Source: Candidatus Tiamatella incendiivivens
GTDB taxonomy: Archaea > Thermoproteota > Thermoprotei_A > Sulfolobales > Acidilobaceae
Direction: 5' to 3'
DNA: 32,848 nt
Assembly: GCA_015522635.1 (NCBI GenBank)
Contig: WALW01000014.1
Location: 1-32,848, forward strand
The notes below the pieces were generated by a model. That model did no database searches, had not been told where the DNA came from, and saw only the letters and a program-made list of their open reading frames with translations. A program made the position numbers and the translations under genes. This document shows positions 5,229-16,675 of this stretch, one piece after another (within the stretch, counting starts at the first letter, position 1; each line of letters starts with the position of its first letter).

Positions 5229-7442
5229 TTATGTATATATAGTTGGTTTAGCCCTCATCATATCCTTGCTATACCTTTGTTTAGCTTTTTCCATCCATTC
5301 CTCATAGTATCTTACCATTTGCTCGTTTATACTAGGGCGTACCTTCTTCAAGGCCTCATCGAAATGCCGCATTCTCACAATAGTTGTAGATAAATCTTCT
5401 CTAAGTGCTATTAGAGCAGCTTCCCTTACTAAAGCTTCTATATCCGCTCCTGTATATCCCTCTGTATTCTCGGCTAGCTCTATGAGGTTTACATCTGTAG
5501 ACAGAGGTACTTCTCTTGTATATATCTTTAGTATTTCTAGTCTAGCCCTCTTATCTGGAGGTGGTACGTAAACTAGCTTCTCAAGTCTCCCTGGCCTGAT
5601 TAGAGCAGGATCTATCATATCGGGTCTGTTGGTAGCTGCAATAACTATAACGTTTTCCAACCTTGCAATTCCATCCAACTCTGTTAGAAGCTGTGAAACT
5701 ATCCTCTCCGACACACGGGAGTCTAATGCATATCCCCTTGCAGGAGCTATCGCATCTATCTCATCGAGAAATACAACAGTCGGTGAATATTGCCTGGCCT
5801 TTCTGAATATTTCCCTTATAGCCTTCTCACTTTCACCAACCCATTTACTCAATACTTCGGGGCCCCGTACTGCAATGAAACTCGCTCCACTCTCTGTTGC
5901 TGCTCCTCTAGCGAGTAATGTTTTCCCCGTCCCAGGAGGACCGAAGAGCAGTATTCCTCTGGGAGGCCTTATTCCAAGCCTGGTAAAAGCCTTAGCGTAC
6001 TTTAAGGGCCATTCTACAGATTCGATAAGCTCCATTTTAGCTTCTTCTAACCCTCCAATATCAGTCCATTTAGTTTCAGGAACCTCGATGAAAATTTCTC
6101 TAAGCCCACTAGGTACTATTTCGTTAAAAGCAGCCATGAAATCCTCCATTCGAACCTCCATTTTCTCCAGTATCTCAACAGGAATCTGCTCTTCTTCCAA
6201 GTCGATCTCAGGTAAGTATCTTCTTAGTGCATGCATTGCTGCCTCTCTTACTAGTGCCGCTAAATCTGCCCCTGTATAACCATGTGTTATTTCTGCCATC
6301 TTCTCTAAATCCACATCATCGTTTAGGGGCATATGTCTTGTGTGAATTTGTAGGATCTCCAGTCTCCCAGTCTTGTCCGGTAATGGAACCTCTATCTCCC
6401 TGTCAAATCTACCCGGCCTTCTAAGGGCAGGATCCACAGCGTTAGGCCTATTAGTAGCTGCAATGACAATGACGTTCCCTCTCGACCCAAGGCCGTCCAT
6501 TAAAGCCAATAATTGCGCTACAACCCTTCTCTCTACTTCTCCTACAACCTCGTCTCTTTTAGGTGCTATTGCATCTATTTCATCGATAAATATTATACTT
6601 GGAGCATTCTTCCTAGCCTCTTCGAATATTTCTCTGAGCCTTTGCTCGCTTTCTCCGTAAAACTTACTCATAATCTCAGGTCCATTTATGGCAATAAAAT
6701 AAGCATCACTCTCGTTTGCAACAGCTTTAGCAAGAAGCGTTTTACCTGTTCCGGGAGGTCCATATAGCAATACTCCTTTGGGAGGTTCTATGCCAAGTCT
6801 CTTGAATACCTCAGGATGTCTTAGCGGTAACTCAATGAGTTCCCTTACTCTTTGAACTATCTGTTTTATCCCACCTATATCTTCATATGTTATACGAGGA
6901 ACACCTATCTGGGAAACCGGCTTACCTAGAATCTCAATTACTGTATCTTCGGTTACAATAACAGGCCCCTTAGGTTTTGTTGAAACCACCATTAATGGGA
7001 TAGCTTGGCCTATAACAGCCACCATTATAATATTTTCTTCTAGCAAAGGCTGGTTTATCAATTTCTTCTTAACAAATTTCTTGAACCCCTCATCAATACT
7101 CATAGTATAGTTAGTGGGAGCAAGTTTTACTTTCACGGCTTTTCTCGAATCAGCTTTCCTAACTATTACCTTATCTCCTATATTTACTCCTGCATTTTTC
7201 CTTGTCACACCGTCCATTCTAATTATATCCAGACCACTGTCCTCAGGTAAAGCAGGCCATACTATTGCTACAGTTTTCTTCTTTCCTTCAATCTCCACTA
7301 TATCTCCAGGTTCTAATCCTAGCTTTCTCATTATAGCCATGTCAATCCTAACTTTGCCCCTACCACTATCCCTCGGCTTTGCCTCGGCGACACGTAAAGT
7401 TACTTCCTTTTTATCGTCTTTCTCAGGTGCCTGTGCTGCCAT
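5229..7442 (-). CDS. cdc48: Cdc48/VCP-type AAA+ ATPase with C-terminal HbYX motif
   Basis: About 737 residues: a Cdc48 N-domain (double-psi barrel plus second subdomain, roughly residues 10-180), then two AAA modules. The first has GPPGTGKT near residue 228, [12 protein letters not shown] and an arginine-finger stretch. The second has GPPGTGKT near residue 500, [12 protein letters not shown] and [10 protein letters not shown]. It unfolds substrates with ATP hydrolysis. The last three residues, I-Y-T, fit the hydrophobic-Tyr-X tail used by proteasome-activating ATPases to dock on the 20S core, implying coupling to the proteasome. A GTG at 7451 is in frame but lies inside the GGTGGAG Shine-Dalgarno; the ATG at 7442 ([10 protein letters not shown]) is preferred. 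It has its own upstream region and stands alone on the minus strand. Confidence 0.96.
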
Positions 7443-7582
7443 AATCTCCACCTTTAGGCGAATTTACCCATTTTATTATTGCTAGTATTCGAGGGTTTTT
7501 TAACTAATGGATAATATTTTTGCAAAGTCTAACTAGGTAGATCGGAACCTGGAATGAAGAAAACTTGCTTAAGAAATCGAGC

Positions 7583-13161: not shown

Positions 13162-13239
13162 TGGCGCCGTGGCCGGGATTTGAACCCGGGTCACGGGCTT
13201 GACAGGCCCGCATACTAAGCCAGGCTATACTACCACGGC
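13162..13239 (-). tRNA. tRNA-Asp(GTC)
   Basis: On the minus strand the acceptor GCCGTGG (13233-13239) pairs with CCACGGC. The anticodon stem CGGGC/GCCCG closes the seven-base loop CTGTCAA, giving anticodon GTC. The T-arm is CCGGG TTCAAAT CCCGG, the discriminator is G and the CCA is encoded at 13162-13164. No intron is present. The gene lies between the convergent end of the ClC gene and the start of the GRC3-like gene, transcribed opposite to both. Confidence 0.97.
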
Positions 13240-13302: not shown

Positions 13303-14520
13303 TTGAGCATTCTAGAAAAAGGCTTTTACAAAATAAGGGGCCCAGGAAAGCTTAGACTTACAGGATGTAACATAGATATAATGGGAATAACATGTAGTGG
13401 GGAGTGTGATTTTGTAATCCCTACGGGAAGAACCTATCTTTTTAGAGTCAAGGGAAGTAAATGCACGTACATGGCTTCCCCTAGGGAAGCCATGGTCGTA
13501 GAGGATGATTGGGGAGGTCTCATATACAGTATTCGGGATAAAATAATATCCATACTAAAAGAAAGCAGTCATGATGGAGTAGTATTCATAGGACCACCGG
13601 ACTCCTTTAAAAGTACAATTTCAACTCTAGTATTCAATACCATTTTCTCAGCAGCCGATCATCTAGAAGTGAGACCTTGTTATATAACTACAGACGTAGG
13701 GCAAAACGAAATATTCATGCCTACTTTCATCTCAGCGACAATCTTACCTGTATATCCAGGCATACAGGTTAACAATACAATTAACTGTTTTACAGGAGCA
13801 ATCTCGCCTGCCTTTAATACTGAGAAATATCTATGGTGTATCACACATTTAGTCGGTAGACTGCGTTCGGATAGAAATTTTTTCATTGTCGATACAGATG
13901 GATGGATAAACAGTTACAAGGCTATATATAGCAAAATGATGATAGCCGAACTCTTTGATGATCCACTAATAGTATACACGGGCTTGGATGAGGAATTTAA
14001 GAAGTATCTTTATTATCATTTCAATGACATAACCGAATACAATATACCGAAGAGTATCATAACAAACAAAACCTCTAGTGAAAGAAGAGTTCATCGTGCC
14101 CGGCTCGTCTTGAGAGCCTTTAGGGATCCTTGTAGAATTATAATAGATTGCCAGAAGTCCATGATAGCAGGTCTACCCATTTTCCACGGATCCAAAACCG
14201 ATATATCTCGATTTGGAGTACCAACTGTTATCTACGCGGAAAACTGGAATGGTAAAATTATCGCTGTTTTAGAGGATAAATTCTCATACAAACTACAGGA
14301 CAAAGATATCGAAGTTCTAAGAAAAAACTGGGAACAAGGGCTTATTGCAGCACTTTACAATAAAGGTGAAGTTAGAGAGGTAGGACTTGTAGAGAAGGTT
14401 GATTATAGGAAAAAGAGATTAGCTATAATCACTAATAAAGGGGCGTCCTTTGACTATATTGAAATTGGTAGGACATCATTTCCAGGAGTTCTAGAAACTT
14501 TAGAACACTCGTTACAGTAG
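13303..14520 (+). CDS. GRC3/Clp1-type polynucleotide 5'-kinase homologue with atypical P-loop
   Basis: A 405-residue protein of the Clp1/Grc3 RNA kinase family, which phosphorylates 5'-OH ends of RNA using ATP or GTP. The order is as expected: an N-terminal beta domain (RLTGCNIDIMGITCSG, IPTGRTYLF), a P-loop region near residues 97-105 (GPPDSFKST), a Walker-B-adjacent block YITTDVGQNEIFMPTFIS, VDTDGWINSYKA near residue 200, and a C-terminal beta domain. The P-loop has Phe where the invariant Gly before Lys should be, so normal kinase activity is uncertain. The start is TTG after GGAGGG. It is followed 17 bp later by an unknown small gene in the same direction. Confidence 0.82.
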   Translation: MSILEKGFYKIRGPGKLRLTGCNIDIMGITCSGECDFVIPTGRTYLFRVKGSKCTYMASPREAMVVEDDWGGLIYSIRDKIISILKESSHDGVVFIGPPDSFKSTISTLVFNTIFSAADHLEVRPCYITTDVGQNEIFMPTFISATILPVYPGIQVNNTINCFTGAISPAFNTEKYLWCITHLVGRLRSDRNFFIVDTDGWINSYKAIYSKMMIAELFDDPLIVYTGLDEEFKKYLYYHFNDITEYNIPKSIITNKTSSERRVHRARLVLRAFRDPCRIIIDCQKSMIAGLPIFHGSKTDISRFGVPTVIYAENWNGKIIAVLEDKFSYKLQDKDIEVLRKNWEQGLIAALYNKGEVREVGLVEKVDYRKKRLAIITNKGASFDYIEIGRTSFPGVLETLEHSLQ

Positions 14521-14537
14521 TATGGGGGAAATGATAG

Positions 14538-14903
14538 TTGAGGATAAAAGAAATAGTAGTTAACAGTGAAGGATTATCCTTTGTTAGAGATAGTAGGAGA
14601 GTGAAAAACCAAGTTATCAACATCACTTTACCCCTAGAAATTCTAGAATGGATAAAATGCGAGAAAAATAGGCGCATTCTACTTAGCGTGTGCAATTTAC
14701 CTATTTTGAAAAAGAGAATCGAGAACCCTAGATCTCTTAGGAGTCTTATACTTCTGTTTTACTCTATAGCTAAAAATATTCCTCCTTATAAGATAGCCTT
14801 GAAATTTGGTGTACACCCTGAACAACTTTACAGACACCGTAGAGCATTAACATCAGCTGGCTTATATAGTGCATTAACTATGATTCTAGAAGAGAGATGT
14901 TAG
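14538..14903 (+). CDS. Unknown small protein with HTH-like C-terminus
   Basis: A 121-residue protein I do not recognise. It starts at TTG behind GGGGGAAA. The N-terminal half is basic and hydrophobic by turns (ITLPLEILEWIKCEKNRRILLSV). The C-terminal half contains a helix-turn-helix-like pattern, PPYKIALKFGVHPEQLYRHRRAL, followed by a short helix. It therefore may bind nucleic acid. It follows the GRC3-like gene by 17 bp and probably shares its transcript. Its stop codon lies 9 bases from the tail of the tRNA 5'-half-like sequence on the opposite strand. Confidence 0.65.
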   Translation: MRIKEIVVNSEGLSFVRDSRRVKNQVINITLPLEILEWIKCEKNRRILLSVCNLPILKKRIENPRSLRSLILLFYSIAKNIPPYKIALKFGVHPEQLYRHRRALTSAGLYSALTMILEERC

Positions 14904-14912
14904 TTAAGAAGG

Positions 14913-14955
14913 GGCGGACGGGGTCCGCCGCTCTCCCTGGCTGAGCTACGGGCCC
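14913..14955 (-). tRNA. Lone 5' tRNA half (tRNA-Lys-like), candidate split tRNA
   Basis: On the minus strand bases 14955 to 14923 read as the 5' part of an archaeal elongator tRNA. The acceptor strand is GGGCCCG, then TA, a perfect D-arm GCTC/GAGC with loop AGCCAGGGA, base G26, and an anticodon 5' stem GCGGA followed by C. The block resembles archaeal tRNA-Lys. The match stops there: position 33 is C, not T, and no T-arm or acceptor 3' strand follows, because the HTH-like gene begins. Instead the trailing GTCCGCC (14919-14913) pairs perfectly with GGCGGAC across CCC, then a T-rich end CCTTCTTAA follows. A TATA-like box lies about 50 bases upstream. It is either a trans-spliced split tRNA half, as known for tRNA-Lys(CUU) in Staphylothermus, or a remnant. 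Confidence 0.55.
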
Positions 14956-14972
14956 AACCAACTCAGCCAAGG
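14935..14972. repeat. Imperfect inverted repeat joining tRNA-half leader and D-arm
   Basis: CCCTGGCTGAG (14935-14945) and CTCAGCCAAGG (14962-14972) are inverted copies with 10 of 11 positions paired, or 11 with a G-U pair. One arm is the D-arm of the tRNA half, the other is its predicted leader. In the transcript the leader could pair with the D-arm. Confidence 0.7.
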
Positions 14973-14983
14973 CATATGAGAAT

Positions 14984-15023
14984 ATGTTTTACAGGAAGGG
15001 ATTTAAGTATTCCTGTAAAACAT
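14984..15023. promoter_or_regulatory. Perfect 14-bp inverted repeat flanking a TATA-like box
   Basis: ATGTTTTACAGGAA (14984-14997) and TTCCTGTAAAACAT (15010-15023) are exact reverse complements separated by 12 bases. The spacer contains ATTTAAGTA, which reads as a TATA-like box on either strand (CTTAAAT on the minus strand). It is about 50 bases upstream of the tRNA 5' half and about 60 bases upstream of the GC-rich segment at 15074. It could be an operator around a bidirectional promoter. Confidence 0.6.
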
Positions 15024-15073
15024 GACTAACTCCATGATAAAAACTAAAGACTGCAAAGAAAATTATTCCATAT

Positions 15074-15162
15074 CCGGGCCGTTGACATGGGAACCCGGGG
15101 CAATTGCCCTACGGACCTGTCTATGGGATGATGATAAGGCCCGCATGTGAGGCCCCACACCG
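15074..15162. ncRNA. Unassigned GC-rich structured segment, candidate ncRNA
   Basis: An approximately 90-base GC-rich island in an AT-rich intergenic gap. It holds a perfect palindrome GGGCAATTGCCC (15098-15109), enclosed by GGCCGT (15077-15082) pairing with ACGG-A-CC (15111-15117), and CCGGG/CCCGG that could compete. Downstream lies GATGATGA, resembling a box C or K-turn strand, then GGCC/GGCC and an ACA near the end. No CTGA D box was found, so a standard C/D guide is unlikely, and an H/ACA fold is not convincing. On the minus strand a TATA-like TTTATTTTTA lies upstream and a T-rich TAATTTTCTTT lies downstream, so strand is open. Confidence 0.4.
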
Positions 15163-15190
15163 ATTGAAGTAAAAATAAATGGTGAAGGCG

Positions 15191-15676
15191 TTGAAAGCGG
15201 CTGTTCTGGTTGCATATGATAACAAAGGTGTTCTAATGGTACATAAAACATGCAAGGACGGCTATCCCTGGAGCTGTGATCTTGCATTTCCCGGTGGGAG
15301 GCTAAAGCCGGGTGAGACTATAATTGAAGGAGCATTAAGAGAAGCTGAAGAAGAAGTTTGTATGAGTAGTGATAACTTGAAGATAAGAAGTATATTACCT
15401 CTAGAGCGGCCTTTAAACGTTCCTGATATTATCGTGTATCCTGTATTAGCCGAGATGCTTCCCGGGGCGACAAAACATGTATGCAGTAATGAAATAGATA
15501 AAATCCTAATCGTTCCCTGGAATAAAGTCTGTAGTTTCCGTTTAGAACCATGGGTTCATCCTCTTAGGAAAATAGCCATCGAAGGAATAGTCCTGAAAGA
15601 AGGGTTGGCAGTCTGGGGAATGTCTTTAAGAATACTAAAAAGAGTTAAAGACCTCATGTGCAGGGACTGGGATTGA
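15191..15676 (+). CDS. NUDIX hydrolase (CoA-pyrophosphatase-like)
   Basis: About 161 residues with a full Nudix box: GGRLKPGETIIEGALREAEEEVCM, i.e. G-x5-E-x7-REAEEE, with Cys at the usual Gly near the end. The enzyme would hydrolyse a nucleoside diphosphate linked to another group; the layout resembles short CoA diphosphatase-like members, but the substrate cannot be told. An ATG at 15179 is in frame, yet GGTG lies inside its second codon region, 6 bases before a TTG at 15191. The TTG is preferred given the Shine-Dalgarno habit of this genome. The stop is 3 bp from the start of the TtuA-like gene, so the two form an operon. Confidence 0.88.
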   Translation: MKAAVLVAYDNKGVLMVHKTCKDGYPWSCDLAFPGGRLKPGETIIEGALREAEEEVCMSSDNLKIRSILPLERPLNVPDIIVYPVLAEMLPGATKHVCSNEIDKILIVPWNKVCSFRLEPWVHPLRKIAIEGIVLKEGLAVWGMSLRILKRVKDLMCRDWD

Positions 15677-15679
15677 TCT

Positions 15680-16675
15680 ATGTATAATAAGATATGCCCA
15701 GGCGATCCGGAGATATATCAGGTACATAAGAGAAGGGCTATTTCAAAGAAGTGTTTCAAAGAAGATATAAGGAAACGGGTTCAGAATACTGTGTCAAAAT
15801 TTAACATGTTCACCCCCCACGATAAACTAGTCTTAGGTTTATCTGGTGGCAAAGACAGTTATGTATTGTTAGATGTTCTAGCACAAATACATGATCCAGG
15901 GAAGATTATTGGCGTATCAATAATCGAGGGAATCCCTGGATATAATAAACCAGGAGATATCAGATATATGAAGGCTCTTGCCCGGGATAGAGGAGTCGAT
16001 GTTATAATAACTAGCATCAGAGAATATGTAGGAGAGACATTATATGAAATTGTAAAGCATTCGTGGAAAAATAACTTAAACGTCTCTCCTTGCACTTTTT
16101 GTGGGGTATTGAGACGTAGAATACTAAACTATTATGGCAGAATTCTAGGTGCCGATAAAACGGTGACGGCCCACAACCTGGATGATACTGCACAAACAAT
16201 GTTGACTAATATTTTTAGGGGGGATATAATTGGTTTAATCAGGCAAAATCCGAAGACGACCTGCTCTAATCCCAAATTTGTTAACAAAGTAAAACCACTC
16301 CGATATGTTTATGAGTATGAAGCTGCACTATACGCAGCGATCGATGGATTTAAGTTCCAAGACACAGAATGTATGTTCATTAACCAAACTCCGACATTTA
16401 GAGCTAAAATCAGGGAAGTACTCTACAAGCTTGAAGCGGAATATCCTGGTGTTACTCAAGACATAGTAGAAACCTTGGATGATGTGACAAGTAAAATGAT
16501 TAAGAAAAATCTTCTAAAAACAATAAATCTTCCTTTATGCAGGCTCTGCGGAGAACCAACCAATGAAGGTAGAACCTTATGTAAGCTCTGTGAATTACTC
16601 GGGAAGGCGGGTATATACAATCCTATATATCAAGTAAACTTTAAAGAATATACCAAGACCATGAGTATAAATTAA
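15680..16675 (+). CDS. TtuA/NcsA-family tRNA 2-thiolation enzyme
   Basis: A 331-residue PP-loop ATPase that adenylates a tRNA uridine for sulfur transfer (U54 for TtuA, U34 for NcsA; the two cannot be separated by eye). The ATP motif is GLSGGKDSYVLL near residue 54, the central Fe-S/sulfur-carrier cysteine pair is in SPCTFCGVLRR, TAHNLDDTAQT follows, and a C-terminal zinc ribbon is present (CRLCGEPTNEG then CKLC). The N-terminal zinc finger usual in the family appears degraded: only C6, H16 and C25 are seen. ATG start 3 bp after the NUDIX stop. Together with downstream L13e it forms a translation-linked operon. Confidence 0.9.
   Translation: MYNKICPGDPEIYQVHKRRAISKKCFKEDIRKRVQNTVSKFNMFTPHDKLVLGLSGGKDSYVLLDVLAQIHDPGKIIGVSIIEGIPGYNKPGDIRYMKALARDRGVDVIITSIREYVGETLYEIVKHSWKNNLNVSPCTFCGVLRRRILNYYGRILGADKTVTAHNLDDTAQTMLTNIFRGDIIGLIRQNPKTTCSNPKFVNKVKPLRYVYEYEAALYAAIDGFKFQDTECMFINQTPTFRAKIREVLYKLEAEYPGVTQDIVETLDDVTSKMIKKNLLKTINLPLCRLCGEPTNEGRTLCKLCELLGKAGIYNPIYQVNFKEYTKTMSIN

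What the first reader, a model, noticed from the sequence alone, without database searches (positions are those of the whole stretch)
14903..14975. Orphan 5' tRNA half: candidate split (trans-spliced) tRNA
The minus strand carries a clean tRNA 5' portion (acceptor GGGCCCG, complete D-arm, anticodon 5' stem GCGGA-C) that stops after position 32. A coding gene lies immediately downstream, so there is no T-arm and no 3' acceptor. It has a TATA-like box upstream and a T-rich end downstream. Split tRNA genes are established in Desulfurococcales (tRNA-Lys(CUU) in Staphylothermus; tRNA-Asp in Aeropyrum and Thermosphaera). Here the match to Lys is by resemblance, and the break before the anticodon would be a non-canonical position.
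Basis: partly seen in the sequence, partly recalled or inferred. Interest (0 to 1): 0.75.

Follow-up and report, generated by a model that had tools for sequence, protein, structure and literature searches.

The report
Split tryptophan tRNA gene in archaeon
The lone tRNA front half in this window has a matching back half on another contig of the same heat-loving archaeon; together they spell the cell's only detectable tryptophan tRNA, so this essential molecule is apparently made by joining two separately transcribed RNAs.

Summary
The orphan 5' tRNA half is real (mature part: window 14955->14925, minus strand) and is half of a split, trans-spliced tRNA. It is not Lys: both Lys tRNAs are intact. 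The partner 3' half lies on another contig (G000:C27:181115-180953, minus). Its leader GGGGCGGACGGGG is the exact 13-nt complement of the 5' half's trailer, and that 13-mer occurs nowhere else in the genome. Joined at 30/31 through a canonical bulge-helix-bulge, the halves give a complete tRNA-Trp(CCA), otherwise missing from the genome. The 3' half also carries a 91-nt intron at 37/38, so maturation needs one trans and one cis splice. The same split occurs in both other genomes of the genus (Tiamatella, Acidilobaceae) and in a second genus, where the paired sequences differ but stay perfectly complementary. Sister genera have intact tRNA-Trp, several with a cis intron at exactly 30/31, in a gene neighbourhood whose members now flank one half or the other. 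So a 30/31 intron was probably broken by rearrangement, once. Papers I could read report no split tRNA-Trp. The trans-spliced RNA itself is inferred; no RNA data were available.

The parts
14925..14955 (-). 5' half of tRNA-Trp(CCA): mature exon, 31 nt, standard positions 1-30
   Evidence: Sequence; conserved in G001, G002 and in second genus G012
14911..14924 (-). Trailer: bulge base A (14924) and 13-nt pairing arm CCCCGTCCGCCCC (14923-14911), complementary to the leader of the 3' half at G000:C27:181108-181096 (minus)
   Evidence: 13-mer found at only these two places in the genome, up to 1 mismatch; cofold
14906..14910 (-). Short T-rich end (TTCTT), possible terminator
   Evidence: Sequence only; partly kept in G002, not in G001
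15001..15007 (-). TATA-like box CTTAAAT of the 5' half, inside a 12-nt block CTTAAATCCCTT identical in three genomes
   Evidence: promoter function inferred
14538..14903 (+). geneX, 121 aa, no Pfam match; its homologue lies directly beside intact tRNA-Trp in sister genera
15179..15676 (+). NUDIX-domain gene, ancestral upstream neighbour of tRNA-Trp (also in G015, G014, G009)
15680..16675 (+). PP-loop (PF01171) protein gene, ancestral neighbour of tRNA-Trp (also in G015, G009)

Best explanation
Split tRNA-Trp(CCA). Two short RNAs are transcribed from separate loci: the 5' half in the window, and the 3' half on contig C27 between tRNA-Asn and tRNA-Val. Each carries an arm that pairs with the other (13 bp). 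The hybrid forms a canonical bulge-helix-bulge: 5' half GAG-CGGC-GG|A-CCCCGUCCGCCCC with 3' half GGGGCGGACGGGG-GCCG-AU|G-CUC. The tRNA splicing endonuclease cuts both bulges and the ligase RtcB joins positions 30 and 31. The 91-nt intron at 37/38 in the 3' half is removed in cis by the same enzymes. Shown by sequence: both halves, their pairing, the motif, conservation, covariation, and no other tRNA-Trp found. Inferred: transcription, cutting, joining, and the order of the two splices.
For: Unique 13-nt complement between the two halves. Joined in silico they give a 77-nt tRNA-Trp(cca) by ARAGORN in four genomes. Cofold gives the hybrid with both splice bulges, as for the known split Lys(CUU) of S. 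hellenicus. No other Trp in the genome. Both halves in G001 and G002 and in second genus G012, whose arms differ in sequence but pair perfectly over 14 nt and are likewise unique in that genome. Sister genera carry a cis intron at exactly 30/31 in intact tRNA-Trp; in A. pernix an intron 31 bases from the 5' end of tRNA-Trp is confirmed by cDNA (PMC4307357). Synteny ties both halves to one ancestral locus; the split genomes form one group in a protein tree. Endonuclease and RtcB genes present.
Against: No RNA evidence. The genome is a draft (about 96% complete), and Pro(CGG) was also not found, so absence of an intact Trp is not proof by itself. In G000 alone the T-stem has an A49-C65 mismatch (G-C in the other three). 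The second endonuclease subunit expected in crenarchaea was not detected with PF01974. A shuffled-leader control occasionally gives equally long pairing runs because the arms are GC-rich, although never the same energy.
Confidence: 0.95

Rival explanations
1. The 5' half is a dead remnant, such as a tRNA pseudogene or the attachment-site scar of an integrated element, and an intact tRNA-Trp lies in the unassembled part of the genome.
For: This genome does hold other tRNA fragments that look like integration scars, near tRNA-Arg(TCG), Val and Ala genes. The draft is not complete.
Against: The half is conserved in four genomes of two genera together with a cognate 3' half whose pairing arm co-varies. 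It keeps the gene neighbours of the ancestral tRNA-Trp. The other fragments are 3' ends of tRNAs or diverged copies, not 5' halves with a matching partner.
Confidence: 0.03
2. Split tRNA-Lys(CUU).
For: The 5' half resembles tRNA-Lys, and Staphylothermus splits Lys(CUU) at 30/31 with the same type of motif.
Against: Lys(CTT) at C27:105586-105691 and Lys(TTT) at C27:198556-198663 are intact, and the paired 3' half carries anticodon CCA.
Confidence: 0.01
3. One long transcript with a giant intron, spliced in cis, or a permuted tRNA, instead of two separate transcripts.
For: Both forms use the same splice motif.
Against: The halves lie on different contigs in all four genomes. In G000, if they were on one strand, at least about 49 kb with convergent genes would separate them (contig ends: 14.9 kb and 34 kb away). 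Each half has its own TATA-like box.
Confidence: 0.01

Closest known systems
Split tRNA-Lys(CUU) of Staphylothermus marinus/hellenicus and Nanoarchaeum equitans (PMC3218864)
   Same: Two halves from separate loci, join at 30/31, canonical bulge-helix-bulge with the same GCCG helix in S. hellenicus, 13-bp pairing arms, similar 31-nt 5' half.
   Different: Here the tRNA is Trp(CCA); Lys is intact. The 3' half carries a further intron at 37/38; no split tRNA in Table 1 of that paper lists one. Halves are at least about 49 kb apart or in trans, not 4.5 kb.
[quoted passage not shown]
   Same: Same broad group of archaea (Aeropyrum is in the same GTDB family by my identification of G014); trans splicing of halves.
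   Different: Asp, split at 37/38, halves adjacent. In Tiamatella Asp is intact (window 13162-13239).
Intron-containing tRNA-Trp(CCA) of Aeropyrum pernix and other Acidilobaceae
   Same: Same tRNA, disrupted at exactly the same position with the same splice motif; the A. pernix intron is confirmed by cDNA (PMC4307357).
   Different: One gene, spliced in cis; no 37/38 intron.
Archaeal pre-tRNA-Trp 37/38 intron with box C/D guide (Clouet d'Orval 2001, Singh 2004, cited in PMC3218864)
   Same: Long 37/38 intron with a segment (GTTACTGGAGC) complementary to the anticodon-intron junction, conserved in four genomes.
   Different: Here it sits in a half gene. Boxes not clearly assigned; no Rfam match.

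Membership tests
Split (trans-spliced) tRNA | Two separate gene pieces that together give one complete tRNA | tested here: met
   77-nt tRNA-Trp(cca) on joining, four genomes
Split (trans-spliced) tRNA | Trailer of the 5' half and leader of the 3' half are complementary | tested here: met
   13 bp perfect and unique in the genome; 14 bp in G012 with different sequence
Split (trans-spliced) tRNA | Bulge-helix-bulge motif at the junction | tested here: met
   Cofold and reading by eye: bulges GG|A and AU|G around CGGC/GCCG; known split Lys as control
Split (trans-spliced) tRNA | No intact gene for the same tRNA | tested here: met
   No other Trp(CCA) among 43 tRNAs; Trp 3' exon signature exact only once. 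Draft genome
Split (trans-spliced) tRNA | Each half has its own promoter | tested here: inconclusive
   TATA-like boxes at -50 to -52 of the 5' half in the genus and 33-39 nt before the 3' half's leader there; no expression data
Split (trans-spliced) tRNA | Joined RNA made in the cell | not testable with these tools
   Needs RNA
Split tRNA-Lys(CUU) | Anticodon CUU in the 3' half | tested here: not met
   Anticodon is CCA; Lys(CTT) intact
Permuted tRNA | 3' part directly upstream of the 5' part on one transcript | tested here: not met
   Halves on different contigs, more than 14 kb from contig ends
Box C/D guide intron of tRNA-Trp | C/D boxes and guides for tRNA-Trp methylation | tested here: inconclusive
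   Guide-like complement to the exon-intron junction in four genomes; no Rfam match, boxes not assigned

The most novel reading that the evidence does not exclude
The 3' half transcript does two jobs: it is a tRNA half and, through its 37/38 intron, a methylation guide that must act before cis splicing. The tRNA would then be made by an ordered pathway of guide-directed modification, trans splicing at 30/31 and cis splicing at 37/38, a combination not listed for the split tRNAs in the papers I read.
Probability: 0.35. Interest if true: 0.75.

Novelty: new member of a known kind. Interest (0 to 1): 0.64.

Why it matters
It adds Trp to the tRNAs known to be split. As the only tRNA found for UGG, its supply would depend wholly on trans splicing. 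It also captures a splitting event with its 'before' state in sister genera: the same tRNA, an intron at the same position, and flanking genes of each half traceable to one ancestral locus. That makes the question whether split tRNAs are ancestral or derived directly testable in one family, and here it favours derived, by rearrangement inside an intron. The ARAGORN and Rfam searches used here simply miss this tRNA, so more cases may hide in draft archaeal genomes.

Tried and rejected
Lys identity: both Lys tRNAs intact. Orphan 3' fragment at C10:106818 as partner: its leader is not complementary and it is a diverged copy of the tRNA-Arg(TCG) 3' end. Fragment at C16:55: the contig start repeats the 3' part of tRNA-Arg(CCT) from C6. 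Phage relatives of the locus: none. Rfam on both half loci: nothing beyond ordinary tRNAs over cut-off. An alignment of two 3'-half loci in opposite orientation was useless; sequences were compared directly instead. A single inversion explains geneX's orientation but not the shared orientation of tRNA-Asn and the 3' half, so at least one more rearrangement is needed; not resolved. tRNA-Trp could not be located in genera g3 and g6 (incomplete drafts).

Full report
What is there. The minus strand of the window from 14955 to 14925 is the first 31 nt (standard positions 1-30) of a tRNA, followed by a C-rich trailer ACCCCGTCCGCCCC, TTCTT, and a convergent gene; no T-arm or 3' acceptor follows. ARAGORN and Rfam call tRNA-Asp, Glu and Ser in the window but not this piece. 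The window is contig C14 of a 1.45-Mb archaeal draft genome, about 96% complete.

Which organism. The same-genus relative G002 has a contig C44 of 11,520 bases that matches WALV01000044.1 (11,520 bases), 'Candidatus Tiamatella sp. isolate S016_46'. NCBI places Tiamatella in Acidilobaceae. The window genome is therefore, by inference, a Tiamatella.

Which tRNA is missing. The genome-wide tRNA search gave 43 tRNAs over cut-off. Lys(CTT) and Lys(TTT) are both intact with cis introns, while Trp(CCA) is absent. This removes the Lys reading. Pro(CGG) was not identified either, so absence alone would not be enough.

Finding the partner. I listed every T-arm followed by a GGGCCC-type acceptor and read those that were not known tRNAs. 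One, on C27 minus, is preceded by GGGGCGGACGGGG, the exact reverse complement of the trailer CCCCGTCCGCCCC. Allowing one mismatch, that 13-mer occurs at just two places in the genome, the two halves themselves. The 3' half reads: leader GGGGCGGACGGGG (181108-181096), GCCG, AT|G, then CTCCAG, a 91-nt intron at 37/38 (181082-180992), ACCCGTAGGTC, T-arm, CGGGCCC, ACCA, ending at 180953.

The splice motif. Read by eye, the hybrid has helix GAG/CUC, helix CGGC/GCCG, bulge GG|A on the 5' half, bulge AU|G on the 3' half, and a 13-bp outer helix: a canonical hBHBh' motif with the join at 30/31. Energy-based cofolding gives nearly this pairing in all four genomes. The split Lys(CUU) of S. hellenicus, read at its published coordinates in genome G053, behaves the same way. 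Joined in silico, all four genomes give a 77-nt tRNA-Trp(cca). None of 20,000 shuffled leaders reaches the duplex energy.

Conservation and covariation. Both halves occur in G002 and G001, the other two genomes of the genus. G002 keeps the pairing through one G-U in the arm helix and one in the 4-bp helix. G001 has lost one trailer base, so its duplex has one bulged A, and it extends the helix (UCAA/UUGA). G012, a different genus, has trailer CCTGCCCCGTCCCC and leader GGGGACGGGGCAGG, a perfect 14-bp helix of different sequence; that 14-mer too occurs only at the two halves of G012. Pairing a trailer with a leader from the other genus loses about 8 to 19 kcal/mol.

Where it came from. In sister genera tRNA-Trp is one gene: with a cis intron at exactly 30/31 in G005, G006, G010, G013, G014, G015 (and in G044 and G073 outside the family), without intron in G003, G008, G011, G020, and with a 37/38 intron only in G009. 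Most of the cis introns end in YCGAN, like the leader of the 3' half; that of G013, ACCCCACAGGGGGCCGAA, is close to the two split arms closed by a short loop. In A. pernix an intron 31 bases from the 5' end of tRNA-Trp is confirmed by cDNA (PMC4307357); G014 has the length of that genome, which I recognise from memory.

Synteny. In G003, G008, G013, G014 and G015 the order is tRNA-Trp, geneX (homologue of 14538-14903), tRNA-Asn, all on one strand. A NUDIX gene lies just upstream of tRNA-Trp in G015 and G009 (divergent) and G014. In Tiamatella the 5' half keeps the NUDIX and PP-loop genes upstream and geneX beside it (inverted), while the 3' half lies next to tRNA-Asn. G012 has the same two loci with a local inversion. 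In a tree of the Cdc48-like protein 5229-7451 the four split genomes form one group (100/100 support). One split, by rearrangement inside the 30/31 intron, fits all this; the exact steps are not resolved.

Machinery. One splicing-endonuclease gene and one RtcB gene were found. Crenarchaeal endonucleases have two different subunits (PMC3218864); the second was not identified with the Pfam model.

Literature. Open papers and reviews list split Lys, Gln, Glu, His, iMet, Asp, Gly and Ala tRNAs; none reports Trp, and text searches for one found none. Subscription papers are largely not held, so an earlier report could exist that I could not see. In Table 1 of PMC3218864 no split tRNA lists an additional intron.

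What is not shown. There is no RNA evidence here. Transcription, cutting, joining and charging are inferred from sequence and from well-studied split tRNAs.

Noticed in passing
G000:C10:106841 and 107783 (near Arg(TCG) 105806); C21:6438 and 8866 (near Val(GAC) 5018); C27:176898 (near Val(CAC) 180023); C19:280161 (near Ala(GGC) 281271): Several copies of tRNA ends, mostly 3' ends, lie about 1-4 kb from the matching intact tRNA genes; the two near Arg(TCG) are spaced about 1 kb. They look like scars of small elements that integrated into tRNA genes.
   Followed up: partly
window 13303-14520 (+): A CLP1-family polynucleotide kinase gene (PF16575) lies one gene away from the 5' half. CLP1 relatives act in tRNA splicing in eukaryotes; a link here is only a guess.
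   Followed up: no
G000:C27:181082-180992 (37/38 intron of the 3' half): The intron holds a 12-nt copy of its own spliced exon junction (GCTCCAGACCCG) besides segments complementary to it (ACGGGTCT, CTGGAGC); the copy is kept in the three Tiamatella genomes.
   Followed up: partly
G000:C19:261797-261863 (minus): The initiator tRNA-Met appears to carry an intron in its T-loop, so the general tRNA model scores it below cut-off.
   Followed up: no
window about 15066-15157: A block between the 5' half and the NUDIX gene is far better conserved in the genus (86-92%) than its flanks; a weak C/D-box-like match lies at 15124-15186 (+), well below Rfam's cut-off. Possibly a small RNA.
   Followed up: partly
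G000:C23:1216-3918 (minus): The RtcB gene is one 957-codon frame in which the RtcB profile is interrupted by about 400 codons: probably an intein.
   Followed up: no
G000 whole genome: tRNA-Pro(CGG) was not identified; it may carry unusual introns, be split too, or lie in a gap.
   Followed up: no
window 14962-14972 (minus): The 5' leader CCTTGGCTGAG is kept in the genus and is complementary to the D-arm of its own tRNA half; a similar NGGCTG motif is absent within 40 nt upstream of 34 intact tRNAs tested.
   Followed up: partly
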